A stretch of DNA of 31,187 nucleotides. It comes from Spirogloea muscicola. Lineage: Eukaryota > Streptophyta > Zygnematophyceae > Spirogloeales > Spirogloeaceae. Shown here piece by piece: positions 1-28,379 of this stretch. The notes beneath the pieces are model-generated. The model had not been told where the DNA came from and made no database searches. It was given only the letters and a program-made list of their open reading frames with translations. A program made the position numbers and the translations under genes. The stretch covers positions 816,664 through 847,850 of the forward strand of contig WELB01000040.1 of assembly GCA_009602725.1 (NCBI GenBank), in the 5' to 3' direction. Position 1 is the first letter of the stretch; every line of letters starts with the position of its first letter.

Positions 1-2214
1 GCGGCGGCGGCGGCCGCCGGAGGGACCGTCTCGGCTGCGCTCGGAGCAGCCTACAACGGGAGCGCCGCGGCGGCGGCTGGGGACCCACCGGCGCAGCAGG
101 AGCGGGGACTGCCGCCGCCGCCCGACGCCGGCGGCGGTTTCAAGTACGGCAGCTACGCCATCCCGCCCGCGAATGCACGCTCCGCGGCGCTCGCGGAGTT
201 CAAGCGGCGGCCGCCCATCAACCAGGTGCGCCGTCGCCCCTCCGCTTGTGGCCCTCCCTCCCTCCTCTCCTCCTGCTCTCCCTCCTCCCTCCTTCTGACC
301 CCCCCCCATCTCTTCCCTCCTCCCCTGCTTCGCTCTCCCGGTCTCCACCTTCCCTTGCTGCCGCCCTCTCGCCGACATGGGCGCCCTGGTGGCCGCTGCA
401 GGACCTCTTCCCATCTCTGGCCCCCGACCGCGTCGTGCTCGTGCTGTATGTGCACAACCGCCCACATTACCTGCGCCCGATCGTCGACGCGCTTGCCAAC
501 GTGGAGGGCATCAACGAGACGCTCCTTATCGTCAGGTACGCAGTTTCAGTGTCTCGGGCTCCGGTCGCCTGTCTGAGGGTCCACAACTCGTGCAGGCTGG
601 TAGCGCGTCAACACCGCCTTCCCTTATCCCTCCTCTCCTTGCCTTACCTTGCCCAGTGGCTTTGCCTTAGAGGGCTGGACTTAGAGGGGAAGGGCAAGAG
701 AGGCCCGCATTTGCTGCTACCGTTGGCAGATGTAGTCTCTGAGTCACTCCGCTTGTTAGATTTGCGAATCATTGAACAAACGGCTAAGGCTTCACGATCA
801 GGGTTTTGACACCCGACGAGTCTAGTGGACATTTCGTATTCTAGTCCGCCACGGCCGCTGACACCGCACAGACGCGCGCTGGGCGGCGGCCGGGCGCGGT
901 GGCGGTGGCAGCCACGACGGGCAGTACGACGAGGTGGACGCTATCGTGCGCGGCATCCGGTTCTGCCAAGTGAAGCAGATCTACGCTGAGTTCTCGCCGC
1001 ACCTCTTCAAGGCCGGCGTTGCCGGGGAGGGATCGGCGGCGACCTTCCCCGCAGAGGCCCTCAACGACTGCCGTGATGCTGCAGACCGAGACGTGCGTCC
1101 CGGCTGCCACGGCAACCCGGACCGGTACGGGCACTACCGCGAGGAGCGCATTGTGTCGCTCAAGCACCACTGGTGGTGGCTCATGAACACCGTCTGGGAC
1201 GGCCTCCCTGGTGAGTTCCAGAGATTACTCATAGGCTTCAGGGGCTGTCAGAGTTTCAGGGTCCAGGGGGCTGTAACTCGGGTCAGGCCCTCACAAACAC
1301 TGGCAAGCCGGACATGCTTACCCGAGTACTATAACCTGAGGCTTAACTCACAAGCTGGCAAAGGAACATCATCAGAAGCGAAATTGCTGCGCGTGGACAT
1401 TGCTGACAATGTGAGAGGCTCAACCTGACAACAACTCCGCACTCCGCCTACAATGCCTTCCCTTGCATGCTCTGGTGCAAAGGGCAGATTGAGGGAGACA
1501 TCTCTGGGGGTACCTGCCCCCTCTCATCCCTCGTGCTCTGCTCACCTCTTGCCTCGTGTTGCAACGCTCTCAGAGACCGCGGGCTTCGACGGCCACATGC
1601 TGTTTTTCGAGGAGGACCACTTTCTGTTCCCCAATGCGTACCGCAGCGCGCAGGTGCTCGCTAGCCTCAAGGCTCCGCTGTGCCCCTACTGCATTGCCTT
1701 CAATCTGGCACCCTTTGATGTGAACTCGCGTGGCGAGCTAGCACCTGCGGGCCGCCTGGTGGCTGCCAAGATGAGCAACGTGGGCTATGCCTTCAACCGC
1801 ACCTTCTGGAACGTGCTGCGGGTGGCGGCGCCGGCCTTCTGCAATTTTGACGACTACAACTGGGACATCACAATGTGGACAGCAATTGCGCGCATACTGC
1901 CGCACCGCCACTCGCTGCGGGCCGCACGCTCGAGCGCTGTGCACCTGGGCAAATGCGGCCTGCACCAGAAGGCCGGCCAGTGCGGCAGTCCTGGCGACCA
2001 GCTGGATTTGCCTACAGTTGAGGACGCCGACCTCGTGCCATGGGTGGCGAGCGCTGTTGATGTCACAGATGTCAAGCAAGACGTCGTACCGGTCGGCGAT
2101 ACCAGCTTCCAGGGCTATGGTGGCTGGTCAGATCGTCGGGATCGCGAGCTCTGCCTCTACATGGCGCAGATGTACCGGCGTTCACAGCCACAGCTGCGAT
2201 TGAAACATCGATGA
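1..2214 (+). CDS. MGAT2: Alpha-1,6-mannosyl-glycoprotein 2-beta-N-acetylglucosaminyltransferase (GnT-II), 5'-partial
   Basis: Golgi enzyme that adds a beta-1,2-GlcNAc to the alpha-1,6-mannose arm of N-glycans after mannosidase II has trimmed it. Model: <1..225, 402..535, 912..1210, 1574..2214; all introns are GT-AG and the joined frame is open for 432 residues to TGA. The family signatures lie in order: VLVLYVHNRPHYLRPIVDAL early in exon 2, a VSHDGQYDEVD stretch created across the exon 2/3 junction, GHYREERIVSLKHHWWW in exon 3, the metal/donor-binding EEDH motif at 1609-1620 (LFFEEDHFLFP), and a VHLGKCGLHQKAGQC stretch near the C-terminus. The start and the expected transmembrane anchor are outside the window; the visible N-terminus is an Ala/Gly/Pro-rich stem encoded by GCG triplets. 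Its stop lies 84 bp from the stop of the convergent mannosidase II gene, the preceding step of the same pathway. Identity is secure; the very first exon is incomplete. Confidence 0.95.
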
Positions 2215-2298
2215 TGCCACTTGCCATCGTCGCAGCCAAAAAGTGCATGCCGCTGAGTCATTTAAACTCTTGCTAAGTGCGTGTCGCCTTCGGTGGTG

Positions 2299-5200
2299 TC
2301 ACAAAGCAAGGTCAAACTTGACCGCCACGATCTCCATGGGGTCCACCTGGAGAGAGCCCTGCACAGCGCGCGACTGCCGCAGAAGGTCCTTCCGATGGGT
2401 GCTGGCGCTGATGTCAGCCTCGCCCACCTTGGGGGCATCCAATGCCTCTGCGGGCATTGTTCCCTCGTTGTGCACCAGTGAGAGCGGCATCTCCCGGAAG
2501 TCAGACGCGATCAGACTGCAAGCACAACTCACATCACGAGCATGAAGACATGCATCAGAGCTTGGAGAGAAATGCCACAAGATGGCTGCATTAGAGCAAG
2601 ATTCCGCTGCAAGACGGGACGTTCGCCAAGCATAGTCCTGTGATGGTTCACCTGGAGAACATGGCCTGCATGCTAAGGCGGCCATCGAGGGTGGCACTGC
2701 AGGCCATCCTTCCAGGCCTTGCCGCGGCGCTGCACCAGCCAAATCACAGTCAGCCAAAGGGCAGACATTTGACTGGTGGTGGGCATAGTACTTGACCCGT
2801 TTGCCATACAAATGTGCGTGAGCCTAGTGACGTCAATGCCGCTGCTGGAGGGCTTGCGCACCTATATGCACAGTCCCAACCGCGTCGCTGCAGGAGCAGC
2901 GCCGTGCTGGGCTCTGCCTTGGAGCCCTTGGCATCGCCGTCGGTAGTATCCTTGTCCTTGCTGAGCGGCCGGTGGACCTTCATATTCACAATGTGGAAGT
3001 CACATGGGAGGCTCCCTCGTAGCGGCGCAAAAGTGGGCCTCATTGCTGAATGCTTCTGAGCCCTCGTCTGTTGCCAAAGAGGCGCTTCAGGGTGTCAGAA
3101 TTTGCATGTCGAGACCATACCTTGGAATCTGCCCGAAGTCTGCGAGCTCACAGAGACTTTGCCAAAATGATATGATAATGTTCACAGGATCGCACATGGC
3201 AACATTTATATTTGCAATGCAGTCCTAAAAACTACTCTTTACTCTTACCTCAAGTACTTCCACGGCCTCTCGCCTACCCACAAAAATGTGAAGAGGATAA
3301 TTGAGCTGCGCCCCCACTCGGTGGGAAAGGAGGGAGGGGAGGAGGGGCGAGGCGGCTTGTGCCAGTGGCTCCGCCCTGCTGCTGTTGCTCTCAAGCAGGA
3401 GATGGAGCACATTCTCTACTGGGTGATTGTCTGTGACTCCCTGCATCAGCCGGAAGCGTACTTCACATACAGGGCGGCATTTTTGCGTCACTGCTAGCAA
3501 TGCTATATACTGAGTCTTTATCCATTGAAGGCAAAGGGTTTGCAGCAATGAGAGTCGGACGCCACTCAGTGGCAGACGAGGACCTGGCCCAGCCCGCGGT
3601 TGTCATCGCTGAGGAGGCGCCGGTCAAGCATCATCTCCAGCCAACCAGACTGCCGCAACATAGCCAAAAAGCATTGGCAGCAGGTGCACTGTCAGTTTGA
3701 GTTAGAGGGCATAATTGGTGACTGCGCTGATGGCATTGCGTGAGTATTTGTTTGACTGACTGCATCGAGGGGAAACTTCAGACCTGTAGGCTGGCCACCC
3801 CCACTGCCTGCCGTGAGTGGACAGAGAAGCGGGCCCCATTGGCCCCCTGCAAGTGATCAGCCAATGTTCATGTCGTATAAGGGCTATGAAAGAGCCAGCT
3901 GAGTGCTTGCATCAAGATGGACACAGACTTACCTACAGTTTACCTAGCTAGCCATCAACAAGAACTGTGACAACCTATGCTACATCTTGATAGACACATA
4001 ACCTATGAAACCATGGTTGTGCTTTCTGGTTGTTGCACCCCCACAGACAGGTGCTACAAACAATGGATCACTTTTTTTGTCAGGTGAGGCTCCTACCTGA
4101 AGAAATGCAAGCGAAGGCATGGGGTAGTAGTTCCCCTGCAAAGGTATCTTGTCCAATGTTTCTCGGCGAACAGTCTGCAGCCATACCATCGAGATGGTGC
4201 CGGATGTGACTGAGGACTGGCTTTTCCTAATGAGGATGACCACGTGTTTCTCGCATGGCATGACATTGCCGTATGGAGAAGCATAGAGTGAAAAGTAGCC
4301 GCGTTTGAAGGAGAAGCTTGCCTGGAAACCATTGAGGTCTGAGTAGAAGACTTTTCCGCTCTGCACTCCAGTCTGATACCTGACAACAAGCTCAGAGTTT
4401 GCTTGGCGCAGCTCCACCCTGTGAGCCATCTCGACGATAGCAGCCTGGACTGTGTTGCCCTCGTACAAACGGGCCCTCCTGACAACCGGTGCAAAGCCGC
4501 CATCTGTTGATCTGAACGAGCTGTACACCTCATGCACCAGAGGTCCAGTTGTCACAAGACTCAGTCCCCCTGCCTTGACAATGGGCACTGCTTCTCCATT
4601 TGGGGTGAAAAGATATGCTCCACTGCTAGTGTCTTTGTATATCAAAAATTGCTCCTGAAGTTGGTATTCGGCTCCGCTTGCCAGGACCTGATAACAGGCA
4701 TGTCAAGCCTTAATGTTTGCAGGGGTCATTTGTGGAACCAGCAGCTGATTGCTTGCAAGCTACATCACGGCGGCAGTAAGAAAGCGCTCATTTCAAGTGC
4801 CGCTGACTACAGCGGAGACTGCAATGCTACTCATATTGATGAGATTCTGTGCCCCCTTCATGCACTGCCATATAGCACCTTGGCATGACGAAGGAGGCCG
4901 TCAGCCATGCCAAAGAACAGCTCGAGGTGAGTGTTCTGTATTGATGCCAAACTGTCATTGGATGGAGACGTGTGGCAGAGGTAAGAAGAGGGGCACTGGA
5001 AGTCTTGGGGAGCATTGTACACAAATATAGTGGACTCCTGTGACGACGTGCAGCGATGAACGCCATTCTGCACAAGGAAGTAGGTCTGCCCATGCGCAGC
5101 CGGGTCCATGGAGTCAGCAGGTCTTGGTCACCCCAACATAAGTGGAAAGGATTATCAACGGTGACAGTATAAGAGCAGTGCCTCATTTAAAGCAGCTGTA

Positions 5201-8200
5201 CAAGCAGACTGCAACCTTATCATAGGCCAGCTATGCGGGACTTAGTGGGCAAGACATCTGGACCTGGAGGCCAAGCGGTGGAACTTTTGCCATCCAGTGG
5301 AGGATGTGTTTCCCTGTACTTTGTCCCTGGCTGTGTAGCTTCCACTGCGGAGTCCTCTGATACAGGGATACGCGGATACATCCATCAGTACGCGTTGCAC
5401 AAGGAGTTGGTGAGAATGATGTCATGTCAATTGCCATTCAAAATACAGCATAGTAACGAGGAGGTTCTCTTGCCAGCTATGCTATACTGACAAGTGTACT
5501 TATGTAGGCCAGCCAGCTGTCTAGTGCTGTCAATGGCACGGATGGCCCGTGGAAGCTGCACACACTCTGGACCATGCAGCCAATTCAATAGACGTAGCCA
5601 ACGTAGTCATTACATTGGATCTGACAACAGCGAGCTAGTCATGAGCATTTTGCTTGCTAAACAATTCTCCTTATGCCATTCTCAAGGAGCTTGGAATGAT
5701 ATTGGTAAAGCTGCATAATAAATATGCTCATGACCAGCTCGACTTTCCTCGACCACGAAGAATGTCCTTGCTTATTGGCTGCAGTCTTAATAGCTATGAA
5801 GCTCTTCATCAGCAGACCTTACTTATGTCGGCGCTTCAGGGCTAGCCTGCACACGGTGAGTGCAACACTAGAGAACGTTCTTTCCCTTCACCATGCAAGC
5901 ACATATCTTCGACTACGTACGTATTCGAGGCTGGACATATAGGAGGCAACTATTCCCAGACTATGAGGAAGGGCGAGACCTCTAGCAGTCAGAAGCAACT
6001 CATATGGAAACAACGTTCCTGAAAAAGGCTGCCCGCAAGTGTAATCTATTACCGGACCACTGACTGAAGGACAGCCCATAACCTTGGCCCTCCTTGCCAG
6101 GGGACCATGCGATTTTCCATCGTCAGGGGAAGCGTCAGATCTGACAGTTCCTTCAGATGATGGTCGAGGGGACTGACATGAATATTCGCAACCCACACGG
6201 GTACTAATGCGTACAAACGCCTTCGCGGCGACTTCCCTGACACTAGACTGCGAAGAGCATGTGCTGTGGTCGAATTTATGGCACTTGCTGAGAGTTGCAG
6301 AGAACGCACCTGGCTCATGACGCATTTCATGTTGGAATCGAGGACTCCATAGAGGTGGTGATCAACAATTATGCTAACCACCTGCTCTGCGGTTTCCTCT
6401 GAAGGATTGTAGACAACCACTCTTTTGGTGCCCTCTACGTCCACTTCTACAACTGCTCTCTCAGGCAGGACATTATGTTCACTCCGAATCTGATAGACAA
6501 ACACCCCCCGCATGTTGATTAAGATCACGCTCCTCTAAGTGGAAGCACCTATCAGAAACTTGAAGCAGCAGGTGCTTGCAGCTGCAAGTGCATGATATAA
6601 TGGAGCATACCTCCTGTGACGTGAAGAAGTCAAGAGCAGAATTTGAGCAGATTCCTTTCTGGGATGATCTCTGAAGCATTGCTGTCATCGCAGTCTCCAT
6701 GAGCTTCTGCAAAGCCCTTAGAGAACCATGCATCCTTCTCCCATAGTCTTCCATCACATGGTCCTTTGCTGTTCCCGTGATACCATCGTGATGCTGTTAT
6801 GGCATAAAGAAACCATCATTGACCATCATTTGCTATGTCCTGCATCAAGCATCGCTTGGTGCCTGGCTGGTCAACTGGAAGGATGATACTAGGCAAACCA
6901 CACAGAGATTCAGGAAGGAGGAGCAGCCTTCACAAGCTCTCATTGTAGCAGTCAATTGAGGTGCTGCTTTCCTACATCGCATGTAGTCTTGCCAAGCATG
7001 CTAATACGAGCCTTTAGAAGGAGTCCTGCCAATTGCAGCTGAGCACTAACCTGGAATAGGGCCAAGTTGCGACGGGCCTCCAGCAGCTGCTCTGCATCCC
7101 TATCAAGAAACAGGGGTGCTGATGATTCGCTGTTCCGAGAACAGTAGGCCTTAGAGAGCGAGAAGAGGATCTCTGTCGCTCGCAATGTCTGCTCCAGGAC
7201 TCTGTCAACAGCCTGAACAAGGATGGACAAGCTGTAAGCCAGAGCAGTCACTGCCCATGCACCCTCCCTATGACTCCTTGCTCCCTCCACCTTACAAAAT
7301 GAAGTTGCCAGGTGACAAGCCCTGAGCAGGTTAACAGAACTTGGATCTTACAATCAAAGGCTCCACTGGTTGAGTAGGCAGTGCAGCTACCTACGCTACT
7401 TGAAGGGCACATGCAGATATCAACCTTGTAAAAGGGACGGGATGTGAAGTAGCCGCTCCAGTAGTCCTGCACTCTGTCTGAGTAGGTGAAGAAATCCCCT
7501 GACAGAGACGGGAACCCGGCAACCGCAGTCTTCCTGTGAAGGTGTTCAGGTGCATGAGCCACTGCACCGCCATTGTCAGCAGTATCATCATCGGCCACGG
7601 CTCCAAGAACTTGAAGCTTGTGTGACGCTTTGGCCCGCACGCTTGTGAAGTAGTCTTCCAGAGTCCCAAATTGCGCCTCCACATTCCAGTCTGACCTTGC
7701 ATTCATGTACTATCAGAGGAGGAAGATGGTCAGAGGGGATTCCTAATTATCTGCGACTTGAATTGGGAAAGCAACACTCCATGGACACAGCGACGTGTTT
7801 GTTGATAACACCTGTGCTGTCAAATCATATTCCAGCCACCAATGGCAGCCACTAATGAATAGGACACAGATATAATAGAGAGAGAAGACAGGTTATATGA
7901 CAATATACACACATATATGAGTACCGAATCATATCTCTTGATGGGCTTAGTTACCCTTTCCTTGAGAACAAGTGCTAATGACCACCATTGTGCCCAGCAC
8001 CCCAGACGAAGAATCATGCTTCTTGAGTCAAATGAAGTTTGCTGGAGCCACAAACTCACATCAAAGAGCCTCCCATAGTTGCTGTACTGAACGTCGGCCT
8101 CCACATTGCTGAAGTAGCGGAAATCATCACCTAAGGGTACCAACAAGGAGTTTGTCTGGTAGAGCATTGACTTCTTGCGATATTGGTCCAGAAGCATCCA

Positions 8201-10816
8201 CGCCCTGTCGTGCACATTCTCGTCTGTGATCTCCACTGGCGAAGTGCCCCAAGGGCAAGTATATCCACTCCCTGTTGAAGGCATTCTGAAAAAGTCAAAC
8301 TGCACAGGCACACAGACACAACAGGGTGAAGCAGTTGATAAAGCCCCCAGGCTTTGTAGCTCTATCATGTGCCAAAAAGTCTGAGATTACAACCAGCAGC
8401 TAACCCTAAACCCTAAACCCCTACACCCTAAACCCCTTAAATCCCCAAACCCTAGACCCAAACCCTAGACCCTAGACCCTTAGACACTCTTTCATCATAC
8501 AAGCAATAGCCACAAGCCATGTATAGTTGGCACACCTGGCAACAAATGGCAGGGTCCGGTCCACAGCTATGTGGGGCATCGTAAGAGTAAAATGGCATCA
8601 TGTGGCAGAACATATCTGTGTCTCTTTGTGAATCCCAGGCCTGTCTCCAGTTGAATTCCAGACTGCGGTTCCTAGCAAGCACTCTCTTGACCTCGTAATG
8701 AGTCCTCTGCATCAGAGCAGGGAATGTCAAGCAAGGTTTGCGGAACATCTGGTATCTGGAGAAGCAAGGGCCCTGTTGCAGCCATCCACCTCTGATCTCA
8801 TTTCTCTTCCTGAAGTCCTTCTAAGAGGGCTACATTGACAGACATGGAGACCCACATATGCCACAATACAACTAGATCCATTGTAGCACAAGTACACATA
8901 CATGCCACGACCAAGGTCCTGCAAGAACTTATCCCCTTGAGATGACTGAGCTGACCAAACGTTTTGTCAGACACATGACAAGCAATGATGGAAACACTCT
9001 GCAGGGGAATGAATGGTAAATTCTCGTCTGACCTGTATGAGCATGTTACTGAAACCCATGCGGCGGTATATGTAGGCCATTGTGGGAGAGTGTCCGAATG
9101 GATCAATGGCCCATGCATTCTTAGGAACAACGCCCACGTTGTCAAAAAGCCAAGTGTTGCCCTCCATGATCTGCCATGCATGCAATTGTATATTGACTTT
9201 GTCAGGGAGATGGTGCCAGAGGTACTTGATCAACCAAAAAATTGTACAGTGCTCACATCTGTGTATTCAGAAGGGGCAGCACAAGAGTCAAAGTACCAAG
9301 TTAGTAACACTTAATCTAAGTTTCGCGATGACATTGAGCAGTTTGGCAAAGTATCCCTACAAAGGTAGTAACAGGGCTGTGAACAAGGAATCCACCTGGT
9401 CAATGATAGCAAAATAGTGTGAGTTGGCCTGTGCAGTAAACCAGAAACTAGATTAGCTACACAAAGCAGCAGTCGTCCAGCAAAATCTGCCTTCTGCAGT
9501 CGAAAATTGCGCACATGCTTCTCCTAACAAGGTCTCAACACACTTGGTTTGGGCCATTGCCAACTGTCCATGACTCAGTAGCTCGTAAGTACAACGGGAC
9601 AACTACCAGGAAGTTGTTACTTGTCAAGGGCAGCGGGACGACCTCGTCATTCATGACCCAACCGCCCCCCACGATCTCGAGTTGACCATTCCTCACTAGA
9701 GAAATGAAGTCTTGCTTTTGCTTCTGGGTTGCATCTTGCCACCATCTCTTCAAGTATGAGATCTCCTCCCATATGAACTTCCGCCTGCGATCCTGCAAGA
9801 AGGATGGTCTCCCTTGGAGGAATTATTGATTTTACGTGCTGGGAGCACAAGCCTAGCGCTTCTCGACAGCAAGACAGATAAGAATTCTTCACTGCATCAC
9901 ACACCTGCTTCAAAGCAGCCACCATAACATTGAGGATGTTCCGTGTTCGCTCATTGTAGTACTCTTCAACAGTTCGCAACCAGCCCGGATCATTGTGCGA
10001 ATGGGGCACTACAAAGACTTGCAGCTTTTCGTCGTCCCACTCTGTACCCTGAAGGACAGAGCGTAAGTCCTAGGTATTACTGTCAAAATCAGTGCAAGAA
10101 GATTCTAATAAGTGACCATCTCATACCCGCTGCTAGCACATAGCAAGACATAGTGCAAGAATAGCTATTCCATGCCTTTCCACAGTGCAAAATAGAATGT
10201 CTAGTCTGAGACAGGGAGAGAAAGATAGATCTATTAGAGTGATGGACGGGCCCAGCAGGACGGAACCCACAAAAAGGCAGCTTAATGAAGTCCAGACAAG
10301 TTACACTGCAAACTGGTGCTTACTTCGTATTTGACATTCCACCCCTGCCTCCAAACACCCCCCTCAGCATTGTCAAAAGCTAAGTTGTCATATAGAGTCT
10401 TGGTTGTGATGTCGGCGACAGCCTCTTGCCCAGCCCTTAGGGGACAGGCTCGCAACCAAATCGCAGAATCCCTGCAGTCAGCATATAATCATGAGTGGAA
10501 ATTAAATTGATATAGTCCGCTCAGTGCCACGTCAAGCAGGTCCAATCTCCACAAGCAGCCCCTGCCTGACAGAACGTGCAACCAGTGAGTCTTTGGCGCC
10601 CAGAAACACAATCAACGTTTAGCTCAAAGCCACAAACCTTGTAAACTTGCTCCCGACGAGAACTGACGGGTAGCGGAGGACGATGTTGTAAAGAAGGACG
10701 GCAATGACGCCAAAGATGATCAGGAGGGCCTTCGGCAAGGACACTCGGCGAGGCCTTGCTCGGGAGCTCCGCGAGGGCAGCCTGCCCCTGCCACCGAGCC
10801 TCTTGTGGCCCTTCAT
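2299..10816 (-). CDS. MAN2: Golgi alpha-mannosidase II (GH38), complete, 22 exons
   Basis: Trims two mannoses from GlcNAcMan5GlcNAc2 in the Golgi before GnT-II acts. Exons, written low to high: 2299..2515, 2652..2729, 2862..3067, 3249..3440, 3584..3649, 3784..3846, 4097..4174, 4322..4654, 4879..5085, 5264..5344, 6310..6489, 6611..6793, 7051..7212, 7425..7709, 8060..8299, 8536..8706, 9033..9170, 9396..9428, 9643..9792, 9905..10048, 10324..10471, 10638..10816. They join to 1177 aa, close to plant GMII. Residues 1-29 are an Arg-rich cytosolic tail and 30-47 a signal anchor ([17 protein letters not shown]), so a type II Golgi protein. Zinc motif HSHNDPGW is at 125-132, nucleophile Asp206 is in [14 protein letters not shown] is at 378-382, and HHDGITGT is at 551-558. 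The C-terminal SPMEI-type strand is present as DPMEI. An in-frame TGA upstream of the ATG fixes the start. Odd points: a GC-AG intron (donor 4321-4320), a 33-nt exon, and a 965-nt intron (5345-6309) in which I see nothing coding. The acceptor at 3067 is the least certain junction. Confidence 0.95.
4320..4321 (-). other. GC 5' splice site in MAN2
   Basis: The minus strand reads GGTTTCCAG|GCAAGC. Ending the exon here keeps phase 0 into exon 4097..4174 and preserves the conserved DLNGFQ then RRET sequence. No GT donor nearby gives a compatible phase. AG|GCAAG is the classical GC-AG consensus. Confidence 0.8.
8401..8484. repeat. Interstitial telomere-like tract (CCCTAAA-type) in a MAN2 intron
   Basis: The forward strand carries two perfect CCCTAAA heptamers followed by degenerate variants (CCCTACA, CCCCTTAAA, CCCTAGA repeated). 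It lies wholly within the intron 8300-8535, upstream of exon 8536-8706 in forward orientation, so the pre-mRNA contains the G-rich TTTAGGG strand. It has no coding role. Confidence 0.85.
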
Positions 10817-11356: not shown

Positions 11357-11391
<35 letters not shown>

Positions 11392-11526: not shown

Positions 11527-14380
11527 ATGGCGGCCCTGGTCGGCAGGCCGCTGGCGGCCGTCGCTGCTCCAGCGGCAGTGGGTCGTCCGAGGAGCGACCA
11601 CTGCGCGAGCCTGGTGAGCACGACTGCACGAGCTTGTAGTGAGATGACGTTGCTCGGTCGCTGCCGTCCTCCTCCAACGGCGGCCACGGTGCCTCCGACG
11701 TCTCCCCTCGTGCTGCTCACATGTCATTAGCGCTTTCTCTAGTCTCTTTTTGTTGTCAGTGTTGCTCCTGCTCAACTATGTGCTCTTGTGGCTTCTCCTG
11801 TCAGGTGAAGACAGCTGGAGGATCTCAGCAATCGGTAGCAGTTGCAAGAGGTCCTATAGCCGCCACAGGAAGGACCTCGTCTCCTCGGAAGTCTCGGGCT
11901 AGGACTCGGACAAGGTGTTCGATTGCGGCAGCAGACAACCGGCGTGTCGGGAGTGGACAGATGCTGGTAAGGGTGCAGTTGCCTGTCCTCATGCAGTACT
12001 GCAATGCAGGCTCAGGGCTGCCTGTGGCAATATCCTGCATGCTACAACCATTTTGTACGTGAATGGCAGCCCATTGTGCTTCTTTGAACAGATGAAAGCA
12101 CAATGAGCAAGCGTCAGGTCATAAAGGGAGGCTCCTATGGTCAGCTTGCACCACTGAGTGCAGGTCTTTGTGCCCCCACACCCTCTCGTCAAACACCTGG
12201 TTGCGATTTTGAGGAACTCAGCAACCCCATCGCCATTATTCAGTGAGTATCCGTTCACCATCACACTGCATCATTGTGTTCGGCCAGGCCTTGTCAATGA
12301 TCTGGAGTAAAAGGATTCGAACCTTTGTAAGAAAATTGCACCTTCTACACACGGCAATGTGATTAGAGTGTTTCATAGCACTGCAGAATCGGCCTTGAGC
12401 GAGTTGGGACGAATTCTTACATATGAAGCTTCGCGAGACTGGCTGGTAGGCTACGATTCCTTCGGAGCTGTGTATTACCCTCAGCACTAAGGTTAAAACA
12501 GGACAGGACTTGCTATGGGAGGTCTACTTCAATTGCAGGCACGAGCTAAATTGAAAATGAGACAGAGAAGAGCGACGTATTGTTGTTGTTGAGATGATTC
12601 ATAGACGGGATACATTCTACCACTACATTGTTGCAGGTGACTCTGGAAGGTCAGGTAGAAACTCCATGCGGCCAAGCTGACATTGAGTTTGTTGATCCAA
12701 GAGAACCTGTCAAGGTGCATGAGTGCCAGCCTTCACTTTCCCTGATAAAAGGGTGTTGATTTTGATGCTAAGATCTCACCTGAGCATTCCTCTGACCTCT
12801 TTAAGATGCGTGCGATGTCAATTGCTGACGTGTGTAGAGGTCTGTCTGTGCTTGATCAAGTGACAGGTGGTCCCAATACTGAGGGCAGGTCTGGTACTTG
12901 TGGAGCACATGGCCTCAGTTCTACCTGCAATGCAGACCTACCATCTCGGTAAAGGTTATCTAGTAGAGGCATGCTGAAGTAAGCTTACAGTTGCATCTGA
13001 TTCTATCACTGTGGGCTTTGCACGCGCCGGTTCAGTCTTCCTGCGATCGGAGGTTGGAAGAAGCGTTTGAATGTGCCTAGTGGCAATCTATATGTGCAGG
13101 ATATGCAAGAGATGAGGAGACATTGCAGCCTTCTATGTATCTAAACAAGTGGGTCTTCAGAGCAACAAAAGAGCAACAAACAAATATATGACATGACATG
13201 CTGGCTTGTTTGATGATTATGCTCGCTGCAGGATGGCTAATTCACTATGCCTGCTTTTGCAGGTTGTGCTTGTCAAGTGGTTGCAGTAGTTTATGACTTG
13301 TGAAGCTTTCAGCGTGTGTGCTGCAGTGTAGGCTTCCCACCACATTCCCAGAAGGATCAAGAGTCCTGATAGCTGACCCTATGCTGGCCACAGGTATGCA
13401 GACTAGAACCAACAATGTCAATTTCGGTCTAATATGACAAGATGTGCATGTACTAGTGAGGAGGAGCGCACTTTGTCAACTTACTCAATGGCTACTGATG
13501 ATTACGGGGTGTAGCTTCAATATTAAGTACTGGGTTTTCATAAATTGACCAGCTCATTAGAAACTGTCTGTTACTTAGGAGGTACTATTGTGGCTGCCAT
13601 CGAGGAAGTTGTGAGAAGGGGTGCTGATGTTAAGCTGATGCGAGTGGTGAGACTGCAAGATATAGTAGAAGATGGTAGAGGATGCCTGCTTATTGCATCT
13701 CAGAGACCTTGACTAGACCCAAATGCATTCAGATTTCTCTGTATCATTGTGGAATCATTTTCTGCACACTTCAAGCTCTGACGCGGATCAGGTGCCCGCC
13801 AGGTCTCAGCAGTTGCTGCCCCACCAGCTCTTAAACAGCTTGGCGAGAAGTTTCCAGGGTAAACATCAGATTCCTGAGAACCTCTAGCCAAACGATTTGG
13901 TCCAGTATAAAATGCTCTGACAGGTCTCTGTAGTCACGGGCATCATTGTGCATTCAGGTCCTGTTGTAATCAAGTTAAGATTTTGCTCACATCACAATGT
14001 GAGCTCGGGTGCAGAATGCACAAAGCCAAGCCCAGGTCTATTGGGTGACGCTTGAAGCAGGTTTAATTGGACTGCTTATGTGACGGCATCTTACACTGGT
14101 GTGTTTGCATGGTCTGACTGCTTGCTGCTGTTGGATCTCGCAGACTCCACGTCTACACGGGCGTCATTGATCCTGAGCTCAATGACAAAGGGTACGTGCG
14201 GGACTTTGATCTAAGTACCACAATATCCATTATCATAATATCAACCCCTGTGAGAGATGGGACTTTTCTCCAAGCCACCTTGCAGGGGCTGACCACGACT
14301 CTTCATGTGTTCCAAAATTGTGCAGGTACATCGTGCCAGGTCTTGGAGATGCAGGGGATCGCAGCTTTGGCACCGAGTAG
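11527..14380 (+). CDS. UPP: Plastid-type uracil phosphoribosyltransferase, complete, 12 exons
   Basis: Converts uracil plus PRPP to UMP in pyrimidine salvage. Exons: 11527..11613, 11805..11966, 12164..12242, 12387..12445, 12637..12714, 12867..12948, 13100..13148, 13332..13393, 13579..13646, 13803..13858, 14144..14191, 14326..14380; all GT-AG, total 885 nt, 294 aa. Residues 1-83 are rich in Ala, Ser, Arg and poor in acidic residues, as expected of a chloroplast transit peptide. The catalytic core starts at VFVPPHPLVKH (84 on). The PRPP-binding loop DPMLATGG is at 214-221 and the uracil-binding YIVPGLGDAGDRSFG is at 278-292. No uridine-kinase domain is fused, unlike plant UKL proteins. The ATG at 11527 is the first in frame; the frame is open upstream but without ATG. 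It is divergent from MAN2 and convergent with the coiled-coil gene, whose stop is 94 bp away. Confidence 0.95.
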
Positions 14381-14474
14381 TGGTTGCTCACTGCCGTTTT
14401 AACGGTCATAATTTGGCCTCGCTTGGCCCGTACTTACGTAAGCAATAGCAGCCTGCCGGTAGACGCGACGACCC

Positions 14475-15906: not shown

Positions 15907-15943
<37 letters not shown>

Positions 15944-15993
15944 GTCTCGCGCAAGCGCGCAGAGCGGGAGGTTTGCTTGACAGCAGCGGCGGC

Positions 15994-16031
<38 letters not shown>

Positions 16032-16181: not shown

Positions 16182-19100
16182 ATGTCGACGCTGGAAATCG
16201 AGGCCCGGGAGTGAGCACGACGCTCGCCGCGGACGCGCCATGGACGCGCCATGGACGCCGCTTGGCGCTGCATACGCTGCAGCCTGGCCGCCTGACACGC
16301 TTGGTGGCTGGTGGCGGCGGTGGCGCGCAGCGTGATCAAGGTCGTGCTGCAGTTCTGCAAGGAGAACTCGCTGGCGCAGACGTTCCAGACGCTGCAGGCG
16401 GAGTGCCAGGTGTCGCTCAACACCGTGGAGAGCCTGGAGCCGTTCCTGGCGGACGTCAACCACGGGCGGTGGGACGCGGTGCTGCCGCAGGTCGCGCAGC
16501 TCAAGCTGCCGCGCGCCAAGCTCGAGGACCTCTACGAGCAGGTATCTAGATGATACAATATCTATATTAAAATATAACTTCAAATGGCGTGCTGTAGGAG
16601 CTCCTGCCTTTTCAGCTTGTCCACGTGACTGTCATCTAGCTCTCCTGGTATCAGGTTTGCGTTTCAAGAGTTATTGCAATGTCTGCTGAAGGTAGCCGCA
16701 GTAGCTGCACTGTGGGTCTCGTCTGCCCACTTTGGGCGATACTGGTCATCTGTCTCCTGCTCAAGGTTTTCCCACTTTTCCCACTACTTCAGTCTGCTGC
16801 TAAATGTTACTCAACACGAGCCAGGCTATCCGTTTCGCGACCTTCAGATTGTGCTCGAGATGATTGAGCTGCGGGAGCTGGACACGGCGCGAGCCATCCT
16901 GCGGCAGACGCAGGCCATGGGCCACATGAAGCAGGAACAGCCGGAGCGGTACCTGCACCTGGAGCACCTCCTGGTCCGGACTTACTTCGATCCCCGAGAG
17001 GTACAAGACTCCCAGATTGCAACAGTGTGCGAGCGTATTGTCAACTTGCCTCCGACACGCTAGTGGTGCAATGACCGTCGGCAGTGCCAAGATATTTGCC
17101 ACCTTGACAGCCCATCCCAAGTTCATCAGACTTTGCTGGGATTTTCAGTGACTGCAGGTCACATGATGCTAAACTTGGGGTCGTCTCCTACTTCTTGCTT
17201 AACCTTCAGTGTAGGAATATGGAGAAAGTTGGCCGTAAGACGCATTAACGGTCTTTGTGCTATTTCTTGCCAGGCCTACCAAGACTCTTCCAAGGAGAAG
17301 AGGCGTGCGCAAATAGCTTTCAGTGAGCCCCTCCTTACCTTGAGATGACTCACAAACTTAGACCTTGAGCCTCTTGCTCGGCAGAGTAGTAATGTGGCCA
17401 TCATTATGGACTATTTTGAGAGTTAGACGATTTAGACTCAAGCAGACTGGACCTGTCCGACATTCATTCTCAATTTCCAAGCAAGGTAACGAATACAAGA
17501 ATAATGCACACTGTCAGTTTAGTGACGATGAGTCTTTCAACAAGATGCATGCAGTAGTTCTCAGCAATCAGTAGACTGAGTGTGTAATAAGGGCCTGGTG
17601 TTACAAGTGCATTCTAGCTGACGTGCTGATCTTTGTTGCTACAGTCGTGAGCAGCCGGTCTGCTCCGCTTGCTAGAGCCTAGATGTCATTGCTTTTACTA
17701 CAAAGTCGTACCTGTCATATGCACGCCACCAACCTGAGGAGAAACAAGCTTCTCACTTTCATACAAGGACAGGTCCTCACAGTCCATACATAGACACAGA
17801 GTCCCTTCAGTGAATCCCTCTGGCAAGCAATTTATTCACCGAGCCAGGGGCTTAAGGGAGCCTGCCGAAAATGTCCATAATGCTCACTCCTGACCTTCTC
17901 ATCTTCGTGCACTATGACAATAACAGGCTTGTCGCAAGAGGTCACTGTGGTGCCACCGTCGCGCCTCATGGCCCTCATTGGCCAGGCTCTCAAGTGGCAG
18001 CAGCACCAAGGCGAGACATCTGTCCTTTGCTGCACTTTCTGGCAAATTCTCTATAGCAACTTGACGAACTTGATCTCTTATTCTGTTCTTGTTAAGGTAC
18101 TAGTGCCAGTAGCCAACGGGTAAATGACATGCTGTGGCTTGTGGCACATACAATTCTTGATTGAAGTAGCCTTCCTTGGGCCGCCCGGTATGTTCCAACT
18201 TTGGCTTGGCTTCAGTGGAGCCCATGAGAGTTGGTATGAGAGCTAATATATGACTGCTTGACCATACCATGTGCAGGCCTCCTGCCTCCGGGGACCCAAT
18301 TTGACCTCTTCCGAGGTGCAGCAGCTGTGAAGATGGACGAGGAGGAGATCTTCCCCACACAAGTCATGCACACTATCAAGGTCGGCACATGGATTGTGCC
18401 ACCCTCGCTGCTCACATTCCGTTGGATCTCAGAATAAGGAAAGGAAGCTGAGGTTATGCATGATCCAGCTCAGATTATTAAGAATTTACTTGAGTATCAA
18501 AGCTCCCACAGCCTTCAGAACTCCAAAACCCTGTCTAACTATTCCTCGGTCGGAGATCCCCTTGATATGTTGCAGTTTGGTAAGAAGAGCCACCCGGAGT
18601 GTGCTCGCTTTTCGCCAGATGGCCAGTGCCTTGTCTCCTCCTCAGTGGATGGCTTCATTGAGGTTAGTCTGCAAGAGGAGGAGACAGGCTAGGAGAGGCC
18701 TCAGAATACACGGTGGAAATATTGCAAAGCACTGCTGCAGTAATGTACACATCTCTCCGACATACGGCAGGCCCGTAATCCTCTTCAACGTTTTTGGGCT
18801 CTCAACTTTACGCAGGTCTGGGATTATGTAACAGGAAAGTTGAAGAAAGACCTGCAGTATCAGGCCGACGTGAGTCCGATCATTTCAGTTACTAAAGCTG
18901 AGTAAATGAGTGTCTGACCAAGTCTTCACATCCTCAGAAGCTGCATACCTCAGCAGGCCCCACAATCACTTCAGTGGTGTCAGCTCTCTTGGTACACGGA
19001 CCTGCAGTGTATCTAAGGCTGGCAACAAAGTCACGCCAGCTGTCTTGCTTTGCGCTCTCCATCTCACAGGACTCCTTCATGATGCACGAAGAGGCTGTGC

Positions 19101-21351
19101 TGTGCGTAAATTGGAGCAAGGACTCGGAAATGCTCGCGTCCGGCTCTCAGGATGGAAAAATAAAGGTAGCGATGCCAACGTTATCGAGAGGCATCATGCA
19201 GTGTGTCACTGCCATTTTTGAGGAGCCTCAGGACCCAGGCAACAGTCTGATATTGCAATTCCGTCAGACCAGCTTCTCCTGCAGTATCTCTTTCTCCACA
19301 GGGCTTTCTGTTGTGAAATGCACGAAGACTAGCTCTTGCAACCAGGACACTTGCTGAAATTGCGCGGCACGAGCCCTCGCCAGGTTTGGCGGCTGAGGAC
19401 AGGCCAGTGCCTGAGGCGGTTCGAGAATGCGCACTCGCAGGGAGTTACTTCAATCTGCTTCTCTCGGGACAGTTCCCAGCTCCTCTCTGCCTCGTTTGAC
19501 ACCCTTGCCAGGTTGCAAGCCATTCATTGTGCTGCACACCTACTTCATTACTGCTTAGTGTCTTGCTTATTCATAACATAAACAGTACTACTGTGATCAC
19601 CTGAATGATGCAGATACTCATTCAAGCATGGAAGTGCACAAGCAGGTGTCTGTTCCATAGTCTGCCCTTTTGTTTTCCATCCATTCATGCATACTCGTGG
19701 AAGATGCCACTATGCTTGTCTTATGTCTTGCTCTTACCTCCTTGCTTGCAGAATACACGGCCTCAAGTCGGGCAAGACCTTGAAGGAGTTCCGTGGCCAC
19801 AGCTCCTATGTGAACGATGCTATATACACGAGCGACGGCGGGAGAGTTGTCACTGCGTCCAGTGATGGCACTGTAAAGGTACTGTGCCTCAAAGACATGG
19901 GTGCTGAAGCCAGTTTGGCCGTCCAGCACAAGGCCGCCACTGTGTGGCACTCACTCCCTTTGCTACTGCTTGAGAGTACCTGTGTGTTGCAAGGACTGGG
20001 GTGTTTTGTTCCTCATTGCTGAATCTTGATTAGGCTAAGCTTGGCATGCGACCCCCTGCAACCGCTTGCATAGTGACAGCTGAGCTACAATTGGCAGGTC
20101 TGGGATGCCAAGAGCGCAGACTGCCTGCAGACTTTAAAGCCCCCACCACCTTTACGGGTAAGGGATAAGGGATGAATGTCATGCCCACAACCCATCTTTG
20201 ATATTGTTTACACCTAACTCTCCAGAGCCCTGGAACATCACTGATTGTCAATTACAATTTTATCGTCATTCAAAGTCCAGATTGCACCCCAGGCATTATA
20301 TTGACGGCAAAGAGAAGTATTGGCTGTGCCGCTTGGGCAGCCACCACTGGAGGTCACTGTACTTGTGGCTCAGAATTTTGATGTCTTGCCAGTGATTTGC
20401 AGGGCGGGGATGCTACAGTCAATTCTGTGCATGTGATGCCCAAGAATCTGGACCACATTGTCGTTTGCAGCCGCTCTTCCACCATCTTCGTCATGACACT
20501 GCAGGGACAGGTAGTTGTAGGCCATATTGCTGCACTGCTCGTAGTCTTGTGCTCTCATTCTTGGCCAGTACTGAGCTTGGGTGCAGTGTGCCATGCACTC
20601 TCTTGTATAGAACATAGAATGTATGCTCTGTTGTAGTATCTACTGTGTGAGCTGCTGTTACAGGTTGCTTGGCGGTGCTTCAAGTGGTCATACCCTTCTG
20701 CTACTACTTCCACGCACAGGTGGTAAAGAGCTTCTCATCCGGCAAGAGAGAAGGTGGCGATTTCGTGGGGGCGTGCGTGTCACCAAAAGGCGACTGGTTT
20801 TACTGTGTAGGAGAAGACAGGTGACCTGACACTAACGTCAACATTTATCTGACCCTTTTCTACCAAGTCTGACATTATGGCACTACACTCTTGCGTTGAG
20901 ACTTGCGCCTGCATAGTCTGGTCGATGTGGAACTCTTGTGGATGCCTCTCATGTCTTGCATCGCTCGTGCTTCATGACGTGCAGAAACCTGTATTGCTTT
21001 GGCTACCAGTCTGGAAAGCTTGAGCATCTCATGAAGGTAAGTTGCAAATAGCAATCCACTGAGCAGGATCAATTGCTTCGTTTGTTTGTGGAAAGTGGCA
21101 GCCAAGCCTGGTGCTTGTGAAGGTTAGCTACTTCTTGTAAGCTGCATCATTAGGGGCACTGATGCTGTTGTGCTGGATTGTATATCATGCCTAGCGGGAT
21201 CCAAGTGTGAATCCTTTTTTATGCCTTCTCACTCTGGCGGGTGCCCTCACAGATTCACGATAAGGAGGTCATAGGCGTGGCGCACCACCCACACCGGAAC
21301 GTCCTTGCGTCTTATGGCGAAGATCCAGTCCTAAAGCTTTGGACCACATAG
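16182..21351 (+). CDS. SMU1: SMU1 spliceosomal WD40 protein, complete, 16 exons
   Basis: Nuclear spliceosome B-complex factor, the partner of RED/IK. Exons: 16182..16210, 16331..16541, 16848..17000, 17274..17322, 17927..18010, 18277..18380, 18576..18662, 18816..18869, 19070..19165, 19384..19511, 19752..19878, 20098..20157, 20403..20510, 20720..20820, 20985..21036, 21253..21351. They sum to 1542 nt, 513 aa, the same length as human SMU1. The N-terminus has a LisH helix pair ([14 protein letters not shown]) and a CTLH segment ([20 protein letters not shown]). Next come FDPRE and [11 protein letters not shown], then [20 protein letters not shown]. The C-terminal half is a WD40 propeller, for example [40 protein letters not shown] and [20 protein letters not shown]. 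The 29-nt first coding exon (MSTLEIEAR) is supported by the conserved junction codon that creates DVIK. Intron 5 has a GC donor (18011-18012). The stop lies 223 bp from the BGAL stop on the opposite strand. Confidence 0.97.
18011..18012 (+). other. GC 5' splice site in SMU1
   Basis: The sequence reads CACCAAG|GCGAGA. Ending exon 5 at 18010 (phase 1) joins to 18277 and gives the conserved QQHQGLLPPG. The next GT downstream is out of phase. Confidence 0.8.
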
Positions 21352-21574: not shown

Positions 21575-24500
21575 TTACTGAAATCTAGGGTGACCTTTAC
21601 TTCCTCGACTCGCACTCTTCGAGCCCCATGCAAGGAGGTCGCTCTCGAAGGGCCTCTGCCACCGTAACCCGCTCCTCTCCCACCACGCACTTCCCTGGCT
21701 CTGCAAGACCTTGTCTAGTGGGCTCGTCATTCCATTTGCATCATGGCTGTCTGCATCTGTGCACCTCGCTTGGACAACGAAAACCTTGGCCTTGCCTTCA
21801 CATCGAACTTTGCCGGAATGATAAGCGTCTCCGCGTGACGCAATCAAGCAGCGCCGGTGGCCCAGGCACTGCTCCTCGGCATCCTGCAGACAAGCAAGCA
21901 GAGCTAGCCATGAAGTGAGGCAGCCATTAAACCGCCAAGCGCACAGCTATGCTGGCAGCAATCTGAAGGCTGGTAAAAAACCCGCAAACAAAAAGCACAA
22001 TAATGTCACATTTTTCCTTCCTTAGTTGCAAAACTCTATCTCTGTACTTTTCTGTCACGTTGGAACTGCAGCCTCCACTATAGATTACAATTCACTCTAC
22101 GACCAATGCAAAGTGGGCACCTCCTTTGCGCTGGTGTCAGGTGCATAGCAGTCGCCCTTGTCCAGCCGGCCGCACACGGCAGCAGGGTCAGCGTATCCGA
22201 CAAAGTCAAGGGCGCCAATCTCCTGGCCAGGCCCGCAGCTCAGCTCCAGCTCCTCCTCCTCATCACCCGCAACCATGCTCACGCTGAGACTGTGATTGCG
22301 GTCGGCTTTGGTGGCAGAGGATCCGAGCCACAGGCTCGCGCAGATTGTCTTGGGCGCCCGCTCGACAAGCGAGACCAGTGATGGGTCCCCGCCCATCTCC
22401 TCAAAGAGCACCAGTAGGTTATCCTCAGGCCTCAGCCACTCCCGTGGTACGTGGTACCTGTGGAAGTAAGCACGTCGGCCTTGCTTGAGACCACTGCGCA
22501 TACAAAACTGCAGTGAAGCAGAGCTTGCTTGGCTGTGCTGCATGCATAGAGTACCAAGCCTATATGGGTGTTGAGGTACGAGTCTCTTACCAGCGCTGAG
22601 TGGGCTGGCCGCAGCTGTGGCGGCATTTGGCAGGACTGTAGGACCCTTGGTAGGAGCATGTGCTGTCGCACGGTGCACCTGCCGGCTGTGCGATCATGCT
22701 CGGCCAGAAGCGGCCGAGCGCGTGTCCGTTGACCCACGCGAACCCCTTGCCCATGCTGCCCAGGTCGACCGCAAGGGGTCGGTTGCCCTCGGGCTCGTCA
22801 AAGTCGACCTGCGTCACGAGCTATTTCATCGCTAGGTGTACGCTGCAGCTCTAGTAAGTCAAACGCTAGTGCTCGAGAAATATATGACATTGTTCAACAA
22901 TTCTGAGGTGTGCGTGTGCCCAGTTCAATGGTGCCCATCTTAGGGAGGACTATTGACAGGTCACACTGCAAGGGTTGCCAGAAGCTAGAATGTTTGCTAA
23001 GCACTGACTTGTGCGTTTTGAAGTGACAGCAAATGGTCATTACCTTATACCAAGTCAGCGGACGATTGTTTGCCGGAGACGAGTGCCACCTTGCACTCCT
23101 TGAACGACTGGGCCTGTACAGCTCGAGCGCCTCACCACTTAACCCCACCTACAGGATTCGGCTTTTTCAGGTTGGTTAGTCGTTTAACTGGTTGTAGGGT
23201 TGGTTGTTGACATAGGTAATCTGGGTGATTTATCAGTTGCTTGATTGGCCCCATTGAATTGGTTGCTTGATTCCTTGCGTGCTTTAGTAGGTCTGCTGGG
23301 GACACAGCCTCGTCTGTATTCTGCATCGACGTGGCACACATTCTGCTCGGATGTATGTGTTTCCCTTTGAAGAGGCCGCCGACATCAGCCTGCAGATTAC
23401 TCTAAGTTGGTGACCTCAAAAGTGCAAAATATATGTCAAGAGATAGCCACAATGTCACCAACCTGATGGTACCAGCATCCTGTAGAGCTGACATCTAGGT
23501 CCCCTGTAGGCAGACCCCTGACAATCACGCTTCCACGGATCCCAGCTTCCCAAGCCTCGAAGTGGGCAAAGTAGTTCTGCAATGCAGAGGTTCCAATCAA
23601 TCTTGGGCAAAGTAGTTCTGCAATGCAGAGGTTCCAGTCAATCTAATCTTTGTCAGACGTCAAAAGCTGCTACCTTAAGAGGCCTGTGTGGACAACCGGT
23701 GAGCTTGCTCAAAGTTAACTAGCAGGTGTCTGCTTGGTCTTCAGCCCTAGACTGTAGAAATCTCAGGGGGCTTGGACACCTTAATAACAATGTCAACCTG
23801 AGGTTCGATCATGCAAGTGCATGGACTCTACCGCAAGCATCACTCCTCCAGCCAGTCCTTAGATAAACTGCTGCATCAGTGACCTGCACATTGAGTAGTC
23901 AGATAGATAAGAGGCTCTGTAGAAGCTCACCCAGAGGCCCACGGTCATACTGAGGATGGCAATATCGTTCTTGCCTCCTCTTAGGCTAATAGGGAGGGTA
24001 ACAACGGCCCCACCTATGGCACTTCCTGTCCACGTCATTGTGGAGCAATTTGGTTATGTGAGATTCACGCTACTTCTCCAGCCATCATTCAAATATCCCT
24101 GAGATACCTTTCAATCACCTAGAACAGCAACTCTGCACCCTGTTACCAAGAGGGGGCAACACAACTGACATATAATATTGCAGCACACTTGGGACAGGTG
24201 AGTAAGTAATCTGGTGGACATGGACCACAAGGCAAGAACCTGAAAGATCCCCGTTGATGAAAGCGTGGAGCGCATGACCGACGCTTGTGATCTCCAAGGT
24301 CACATTCACAGGCCCGAGCTCCTCAGGAAGCTCCAGGCTGCAGCCAGGAAAAGCTTCGTAGAAAATGAACCAGAAAATAGTAGGAGACTCGAGCGACTCC
24401 CTAGGTAGCATTTGTTTGTACACATTGTTGTAATTCAGAAAAAATCTCAGCTGCGCCCTGACCATACCTGTGAATGTACCACAAGTAGTCGGTGGAGTCC

Positions 24501-27500: not shown

Positions 27501-28379
27501 TGATCGTGCACTGCGACCCTACTTGTGCACGTCAGGAGCGGTTGCCGAATCTGCCCCAACAAAACATGCAGCCCTCCAAGCTTTGTCGTCATTGTCATGA
27601 TCCTGCCTCACCCATAGTTCCACTCGGCACAGGCGTAGGGCCCAATCCTCAGGTTCACGACAAAGCCATAGTCAGCCGCCAGCTCGAGGAAGCGCACAAC
27701 GTCAAGGCGCCCGCTGAAGTCGTACTGGCCACCATACAACGGCCAATAGGATCGGCACAACATTCTCGATACAATTAAGTTCGACAGGCAATAACCAGGA
27801 TTGTCAACTAAGACCCAGTGCTCAAATTGGACTTGGTAAACGACCGCTTTGTAAAGACCAACCTCAGATTTCCATCTCCAGCATATGCAGCGAGTGCAAT
27901 ATGACCGAGCTTACCTCGCCTCTGCGGGGCTCGTGTGCATTCCAGAACATGTATGTTTGGATGGCGTTGATGCCGCCGGCCCGGGCCCTGGCGAACAGGC
28001 CCGGCCACATCTGCAGCGACGAATAGGGTTTAGGGTGTACAGTTAGGGCCTAGGTTTGGGATTTAGAGTTAAGGTTTAGGGTTCAGGCATTCTCTTCAGC
28101 TTTTAGCCAGCGACTGTAGTCCCAGTCCAGGAGCCGACAAAGGCGCTCACGGCTCAACAAAATACTGGCGGCCATTCATTAAGCTATGGAAAACGTTAAC
28201 GGCTCGTTGACGGCGGCCGTGCCTGCGGCGTGCTCCTGGCGTAGTGGACCACGCCGGCGACGAGGATGCGGCGCTCGCCGCCGACGAGCAGCGCCCGGTG
28301 GTCGAAGCTCGCGTTCGCCGCTGCCGCCGCCGCCGCCGCCGCCGCCGNCCGCCACGGCCGCGGCCGCCGCCGCCGCCAT
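21575..28379 (-). CDS. BGAL: GH35 beta-galactosidase with C-terminal SUEL lectin domain, 19 exons
   Basis: Plant-type secreted or cell-wall beta-galactosidase. Exons, low to high: 21575..21883, 22121..22457, 22591..22808, 23044..23148, 23463..23576, 23931..24025, 24240..24337, 24468..24745, 24916..25107, 25316..25437, 25549..25636, 25755..25860, 25990..26078, 26562..26705, 26969..27061, 27281..27347, 27612..27724, 27915..28010, 28223..28379. About 939 aa. The N-terminus is poly-Ala, a plausible signal peptide, followed by [17 protein letters not shown]35 motifs: [23 protein letters not shown], acid/base Glu near 179 in [14 protein letters not shown], nucleophile Glu near 248 in [17 protein letters not shown]. 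The galactose-binding domains follow, and a SUEL lectin domain spans about 795-878 (LSCGPGQEI through CGRLDKGDC to VVQARC) across the last intron. Exons 2-19 are exactly in frame; exon 1 from the ATG at 28379 is one base too long, matching an N at 28348. Intron 1 uses a GC donor. Confidence 0.94.
23563..23644. repeat. 41-bp tandem duplication spanning a BGAL 3' splice site
   Basis: Two nearly identical 41-bp copies (23563-23603 and 23604-23644; they differ at two positions near one end) begin TGGGCAAAGTAGTTCTGC. On the gene strand each copy contains the same polypyrimidine tract, the acceptor AG and the first codons of exon 23463..23576. Confidence 0.9.
26191..26313. repeat. Imperfect 62-bp tandem duplication in a BGAL intron
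   Basis: AGAGTAACTCAGATCTGATG starts at 26191 and again at 26253, followed in both by CTGGAGCATTAA and a diverged tail ending TTCCATC. It lies within the intron 26079-26561. Confidence 0.85.
26304..26334. repeat. Perfect 13-bp hairpin at the end of the tandem duplication
   Basis: TTCCATCCAAGCA, a 5-nt loop ATGGA, then TGCTTGGATGGAA. The stem is perfect. It overlaps the end of the second copy of the 62-bp duplication within a BGAL intron. Confidence 0.85.
28023..28086. repeat. Degenerate telomere-like tract in BGAL intron 1
   Basis: The forward strand reads TAGGGTTTAGGGTG, then GTTAGGG, TTTGGGATTTAGAG, GGTTTAGGGTTCAGG. On the gene strand it is C-rich (CCCTAAACCCTA) and ends within about 15 nt of the acceptor of exon 27915..28010, so it supplies much of the polypyrimidine region of that splice site. 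Confidence 0.8.
28221..28222 (-). other. Probable GC 5' splice site, BGAL intron 1
   Basis: The minus strand reads CCGCAG|GCACGG. Only this boundary gives phase 0 into the next exon and yields the conserved RSTPQ then MWP sequence. The intron positions after GC are a weak donor match, so this is less certain than the other two GC donors. Confidence 0.6.
28322..28350. repeat. GCC triplet tract with ambiguous base in BGAL exon 1
   Basis: (GCC)n with an N at 28348. On the gene strand it encodes the poly-Ala start of BGAL. The reading frames on the two sides of N disagree by one base, so this position is probably a sequence or assembly error. Confidence 0.75.

What the first reader, a model, noticed from the sequence alone, without database searches (positions are those of the whole stretch)
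1..10816. GnT-II and Golgi mannosidase II are tail-to-tail neighbours, 84 bp apart
Seen: MGAT2 (stop 2214) and MAN2 (stop 2299) converge. Known: these enzymes act consecutively in complex N-glycan maturation (GnT-I, then mannosidase II, then GnT-II). Physical linkage of pathway genes for core N-glycan processing is not something I know from land plants or animals, where they are dispersed. Chance is possible, but the pair, together with a beta-galactosidase 11 kb further on, could be a small glycan gene cluster. The near-touching 3' ends also allow overlapping UTRs and antisense coupling.
Basis: partly seen in the sequence, partly recalled or inferred. Interest (0 to 1): 0.72.

Follow-up and report, generated by a model that had tools for sequence, protein, structure and literature searches.

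The report
Neighbouring N-glycan genes, probably by chance

Summary
Plant-type genes for GnT-II (MGAT2, + strand, stop at 2214, 5' end cut by the window) and Golgi alpha-mannosidase II (MAN2, - strand, 22 exons, 10816 to 2299, 1188 aa) converge with 84 bp between their stops. Domains, solved-structure matches and catalytic motifs support both names.

The "small glycan gene cluster" is not supported. Uracil phosphoribosyltransferase and SMU1 lie between MAN2 and the GH35 beta-galactosidase. No other N-glycan enzyme was found in the parts scanned. No relative of either gene could be fetched, so conservation of the pair is untested.

Random order makes one named pair neighbours in about 1 to 2 of 10,000 cases. 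Over all pathways, though, 0.04 to 0.67 adjacent consecutive-step pairs are expected per genome (assumed numbers). One precedent keeps the linkage idea alive: diatoms encode Man II and GnT II fused in one protein (PMC12507850). That fusion is head to tail, so this pair is not simply its unfused form. Overlap of the 3' ends is plausible but not shown.

Verdict: two ordinary enzymes in a striking but probably accidental adjacency.

The parts
1..2214 (+). MGAT2 / GnT-II gene (GT16), 5' end outside the window; exons 1-225, 402-535, 912-1210, 1574-2214
2215..2298 (.). 84-bp spacer between the two convergent stop codons; GC 0.54; no TGTAA or AATAAA on either strand; 131-nt stretches that contain it fold no better than shuffles (z -0.52 and -0.24)
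2299..10816 (-). MAN2 / Golgi alpha-mannosidase II gene (GH38), 22 exons, 1188 aa, N-terminal hydrophobic anchor about residues 29-47; motifs [31 protein letters not shown]
8402..8480 (.). degenerate plant-type telomere-like repeat (CCCTAAA) inside MAN2 intron 7
11527..14380 (+). uracil phosphoribosyltransferase gene (approximate limits), between MAN2 and the beta-galactosidase
16329..21351 (+). SMU1 splicing-factor gene (LisH plus WD40; 5' limit approximate), between MAN2 and the beta-galactosidase
22097..28300 (-). GH35 beta-galactosidase gene (GH35, GHD and galactose-binding domains; both limits approximate)
29003..31187 (-). PAP8/pTAC6 (plastid RNA polymerase-associated protein) gene, 5' end outside the window

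Best explanation
Two plant-type Golgi enzyme genes, intact as far as the window shows, happen to be neighbours, tail to tail, in a gene-dense and intron-rich nuclear genome of the green lineage (probably a streptophyte). Each has its own promoter at its far end and works as usual: after GnT-I, mannosidase II removes two mannoses and GnT-II adds the second GlcNAc (established pathway; activity of these copies is inferred from conserved motifs). The 3' ends are so close that the two mRNAs may overlap by some bases (inferred); no regulatory role is needed to explain the arrangement.
For: Complete domains and catalytic motifs. The next genes are functionally unrelated: UPRT, SMU1, GH35, PAP8. No other N-glycan enzyme in the parts scanned. 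Convergent genes share no promoter. The two genes differ in base composition: GC3 0.80 for MGAT2 and 0.62 for MAN2. Over all pathways 0.04 to 0.67 adjacent consecutive-step pairs per genome are expected from random order (assumed numbers). In ten green algal genomes conserved neighbourhoods hold only 1.2-2.8% of chlorophyte genes, with 0.5-1.9% of genes in neighbourhoods conserved in Klebsormidium nitens (PMC7826186, passages).
Against: For this one named pair the chance is only about 1 to 2 in 10,000, and if the pair must be convergent the genome-wide expectation falls to 0.01-0.17. The same two activities are fused in diatoms (PMC12507850, section 9), and MGAT1, MGAT2 and MAN2A2 are reported in joint Golgi assemblies in animals (PMC12616123, passage), so linking them could be favoured. 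Conservation was not testable, so chance is the default and not a demonstrated result.
Confidence: 0.75

Rival explanations
1. The adjacency is kept or was favoured because linked inheritance or shared chromatin helps balance two consecutive Golgi steps; it is a minimal two-gene N-glycan neighbourhood.
For: Consecutive steps of one pathway, 84 bp apart. The same two enzymes are fused in one protein in diatoms (PMC12507850, section 9). Animal MGAT1, MGAT2 and MAN2A2 are reported in joint assemblies (PMC12616123, passage). Functional gene neighbourhoods exist in green algae: 317 in ten genomes, 169 of them shared by the streptophyte and chlorophyte genomes compared (PMC7826186, abstract and passages).
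Against: No third pathway gene found in the parts of the window scanned, and unrelated genes follow on the right. The main text of the green algal survey has no match to glycos-, glycan or mannos- (its supplement was not read). Arabidopsis genes are on chromosomes 4, 5 and 2 (locus names). Convergent orientation gives no shared promoter.
Confidence: 0.15
2. The near-touching 3' ends act as a regulatory device: convergent transcripts overlap and couple the two genes by antisense pairing or transcriptional interference.
For: 84 bp between stops. [quoted passage not shown]
Against: No RNA data. The lack of TGTAA near both stops is uninformative, since only about 0.5 per stretch would be expected from the 21 and 19 in the window, SMU1 lacks it too, and a TGTGAA lies 113 nt past the MAN2 stop. 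No unusual fold at the junction. Antisense coupling would tend to oppose, not to coordinate, genes that should act together (inference).
Confidence: 0.1

Closest known systems
Bifunctional Man II/GnT II protein of Phaeodactylum tricornutum and other diatoms (PMC12507850, section 9)
   Same: The same two consecutive enzymes are physically linked.
   Different: One fused reading frame, Man II first and GnT II second, head to tail; here two separate genes on opposite strands, so neither turns into the other without an inversion.
Dispersed GnTI, GMII and GnTII genes of Arabidopsis (PMC5225481 table)
   Same: Same families with the same Pfam domains.
   Different: There on chromosomes 4, 5 and 2; here two of the three adjoin (the position of GnT-I is unknown).
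Conserved green algal gene neighbourhoods (PMC7826186)
   Same: Functionally related genes close together in a green genome.
   Different: Those were called by conservation across genomes; conservation is untested here, and the survey's main text has no match to the glycan terms searched.
Convergent gene pairs with overlapping 3' UTRs (yeast PMC3900390, Arabidopsis PMC3032780; search listing only)
   Same: Same geometry.
   Different: Transcript overlap is not shown here.

Membership tests
Golgi alpha-mannosidase II (GH38) | GH38 N-terminal, middle and C-terminal domains in order | tested here: met
   residues 119-429, 484-589, 751-958
Golgi alpha-mannosidase II (GH38) | closer to Golgi than to lysosomal/vacuolar alpha-mannosidases | tested here: met
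   728 bits alpha-mannosidase II; 241 jack bean; 140 best lysosomal chain. Scores only; no tree was built
Golgi alpha-mannosidase II (GH38) | zinc and catalytic motifs [24 protein letters not shown] | tested here: met
   present at residues 125, 239, 376, 550, aligned to the same motifs (roles recalled)
Golgi alpha-mannosidase II (GH38) | type II membrane anchor | tested here: met
   highest hydropathy window at residues 29-47, mean 2.47; location in the Golgi not tested
GnT-II / MGAT2 (GT16) | full MGAT2 domain | tested here: met
   profile 14-349 of 349, E 7.5e-83
GnT-II / MGAT2 (GT16) | EED metal motif and DDYNWD motif | tested here: met
   EEDH at residue 232 and DDYNWD at 312, aligned (roles recalled)
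GnT-II / MGAT2 (GT16) | N-terminal membrane anchor | not testable with these tools
   5' end outside the window
conserved functional gene neighbourhood | adjacency kept across distant genomes | not testable with these tools
   no relatives found; no eukaryote genomes held
conserved functional gene neighbourhood | further pathway members close by | tested here: inconclusive
   none found to the right in the parts scanned, but split genes can be missed and the left side lies outside the window
convergent pair with overlapping transcripts | mapped overlapping 3' ends | not testable with these tools
   no RNA data; only a signal search

The most novel reading that the evidence does not exclude
MGAT2 and MAN2 are a selected two-gene unit in this green lineage: linkage of the two late N-glycan steps evolved here independently of the diatom Man II/GnT II fusion, and GnT-I may lie just to the left of the window.
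Probability: 0.12. Interest if true: 0.55.

Novelty: new member of a known kind. Interest (0 to 1): 0.25.

Why it matters
If the linkage were conserved it would be, with the diatom fusion, a second independent case of Man II and GnT II becoming physically linked, and it would make co-selection of consecutive Golgi steps testable. As it stands, it documents that this green lineage carries plant-type genes for the last two core steps of complex N-glycan formation.

Tried and rejected
Glycan cluster with the beta-galactosidase: rejected because UPRT and SMU1 lie between. Lysosomal or vacuolar mannosidase instead of Golgi MAN2: rejected by scores. Pseudogene: rejected, as both joined frames are open with proper splice sites. 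Structured bidirectional terminator at the junction: no support. The bacterial-style terminator scan found 2 sites in 2100-2600 against a mean of 0.4 in shuffles, but it is not meaningful for a nuclear gene, and the site at 2310-2323 is inside the MAN2 reading frame. RNA families and tRNAs: none found.

Synteny by sequence: MGAT2 (432 aa) in viral contigs, no pattern match; a 488-aa part of MAN2's 1188 in viral contigs, no pattern match, and in genome contigs, 5 pattern matches of which 0 were relatives; MGAT2 DNA motifs in genome contigs and viral contigs, 0; a 343-aa part of MGAT2 in phage records, no match. These collections are not eukaryotic, so absence says nothing.

Papers: searched for these genes in algae and for their linkage, fusion or synteny. 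Of the listed papers I opened passages or sections of eight: PMC12507850, PMC7773692, PMC5225481, PMC4135232, PMC7826186, PMC7614267, PMC12616123 and, others on PAP8. In what I read only the diatom fusion links the two genes; [quoted passage not shown] elegans (passage) without naming this pair there. PMC12616123 (passages) showed no linkage of MGAT2 and MAN2A.
Full report
WHAT IS THERE. The first 10.8 kb hold two convergent genes. On the + strand four exons (1-225, 402-535, 912-1210, 1574-2214) give 432 residues of GnT-II, the 5' end being cut off by the window. The protein matches Pfam MGAT2 over profile positions 14-349 of 349, E 7.5e-83, and the solved GnT-II 5vcm, E 1.1e-50. On the - strand 22 exons from 10816 to 2299 give 1188 residues with all three GH38 domains. 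The best solved-structure matches are entries named alpha-mannosidase II (fly Golgi enzyme, species recalled) at 728 bits; jack bean alpha-mannosidase gets 241 and the best lysosomal chain 140. The motifs that carry the zinc and catalytic residues in the family (roles recalled) are present and aligned with the solved enzyme. A hydrophobic stretch at residues 29-47 fits a type II anchor. Of 21 MAN2 introns, 20 are GT-AG and one is GC-AG. The stops end at 2214 and 2299, so 84 bp lie between. The models rest on splice signals and similarity; there are no RNA data.

SURROUNDINGS. Rightwards follow, on the + strand, uracil phosphoribosyltransferase (about 11527-14380; hand-joined pieces, Pfam UPRTase E 8.5e-44; pieces located) and SMU1 (about 16329-21351; LisH domain, WD40, solved SMU1 chain 6q8j E 4e-50). 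On the - strand follow a GH35 beta-galactosidase (about 22097-28300) and PAP8/pTAC6 (29003 to beyond the window end; solved PAP8 chain 8w9z_K E 3.4e-52 with hand-joined pieces). Pfam scans of all three frames covered the + strand from 2100 to 31187 and the - strand from 12100 to 31187, with chosen frames elsewhere. They showed no GnT-I, fucosyl- or xylosyltransferase. The scans are insensitive to split genes: GH35 and WD40 came through, UPRT appeared only below its curated cut-off, and PAP8 has no Pfam match even when joined. The - strand of 1-12100 was not scanned as a whole.

WHAT ORGANISM. No genome is held for the window. Plant-type telomere-like repeats, the enzyme set and PAP8 point to the green lineage. 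[quoted passage not shown] A streptophyte is therefore likely; the species is unknown.

IS THE ADJACENCY MORE THAN CHANCE? Under random gene order one named pair adjoins with probability 0.8 to 2.2 in 10,000 (for 25,000 to 9,000 genes); any pair among GnT-I, Man II and GnT-II does so in 2.4 to 6.7 in 10,000; any pair among 40 N-glycosylation genes in 6 to 17% of genomes. The finding was, however, picked from everything that could have been striking. With 500 to 3,000 consecutive-step enzyme pairs assumed in a genome, 0.04 to 0.67 adjacent pairs are expected per genome, or 0.01 to 0.17 if they must converge. So chance is an adequate but not a proven explanation. Conservation would decide, but the collections at hand are not eukaryotic: searches found nothing, and one search found 5 pattern matches and 0 relatives.

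PRECEDENT. [quoted passage not shown] This is the strongest argument that linking these two steps can be useful. Animal MGAT1, MGAT2 and MAN2A2 are also reported in joint Golgi assemblies (PMC12616123, passage). Neither explains the present pair, which is tail to tail. In Arabidopsis the genes are dispersed (PMC5225481, table passage). A survey of ten green algal genomes found 317 conserved neighbourhoods holding 1.2-2.8% of chlorophyte genes (PMC7826186, abstract and passages). Its main text contains no match to glycos-, glycan or mannos-; its supplement was not read.

THE JUNCTION. Neither strand has TGTAA or AATAAA within 686 nt after the MGAT2 stop or about 900 nt after the MAN2 stop; one TGTGAA lies 113 nt after the MAN2 stop. 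The window holds 21 and 19 TGTAA on its strands, so only about 0.5 would be expected in each stretch, and SMU1 lacks these signals within 800 nt too. The absence is therefore weak evidence. With 84 bp between stops the two mRNAs may overlap, but this is inference. RNA folding of the junction is ordinary (z -0.52 and -0.24).

VERDICT. Observation confirmed; cluster reading not supported; adjacency probably accidental (0.75), with a minority chance of selected linkage (0.15) or antisense coupling (0.10).

Noticed in passing
window 29003-31187 (- strand): PAP8/pTAC6, a plastid RNA polymerase-associated protein; papers seen in passages place the origin of PAPs around fresh-water algae and mosses, so if this genome is an alga the gene bears on when PAP8 arose.
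   Followed up: partly
window 8402-8480; also 28029-28081: Short degenerate plant-type telomere-like repeats: 3 exact CCCTAAA units at 8404-8432 in MAN2 intron 7 and 2 exact TTTAGGG units at 28029 and 28075 near the 5' part of the beta-galactosidase.
   Followed up: no
window 11139-11182, 11354-11391, 15908-16038, 16105-16136, 28316-28377: Long GCC/CGG trinucleotide runs, mostly near gene starts; the two ambiguous bases of the window (16102, 28348) lie in or beside such runs.
   Followed up: no
window 23563-23644: Tandem duplication of a 41-bp unit, 97% matching, inside the beta-galactosidase gene region.
   Followed up: no
window 4175-4321: MAN2 intron 15 has a GC-AG boundary, while the other 20 are GT-AG.
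   Followed up: yes
MAN2 protein residues 427-458 (within window 7425-7709, - strand): About 32 residues without a counterpart in the solved alpha-mannosidase II, between the N-terminal domain and the [10 protein letters not shown] stretch.
   Followed up: no
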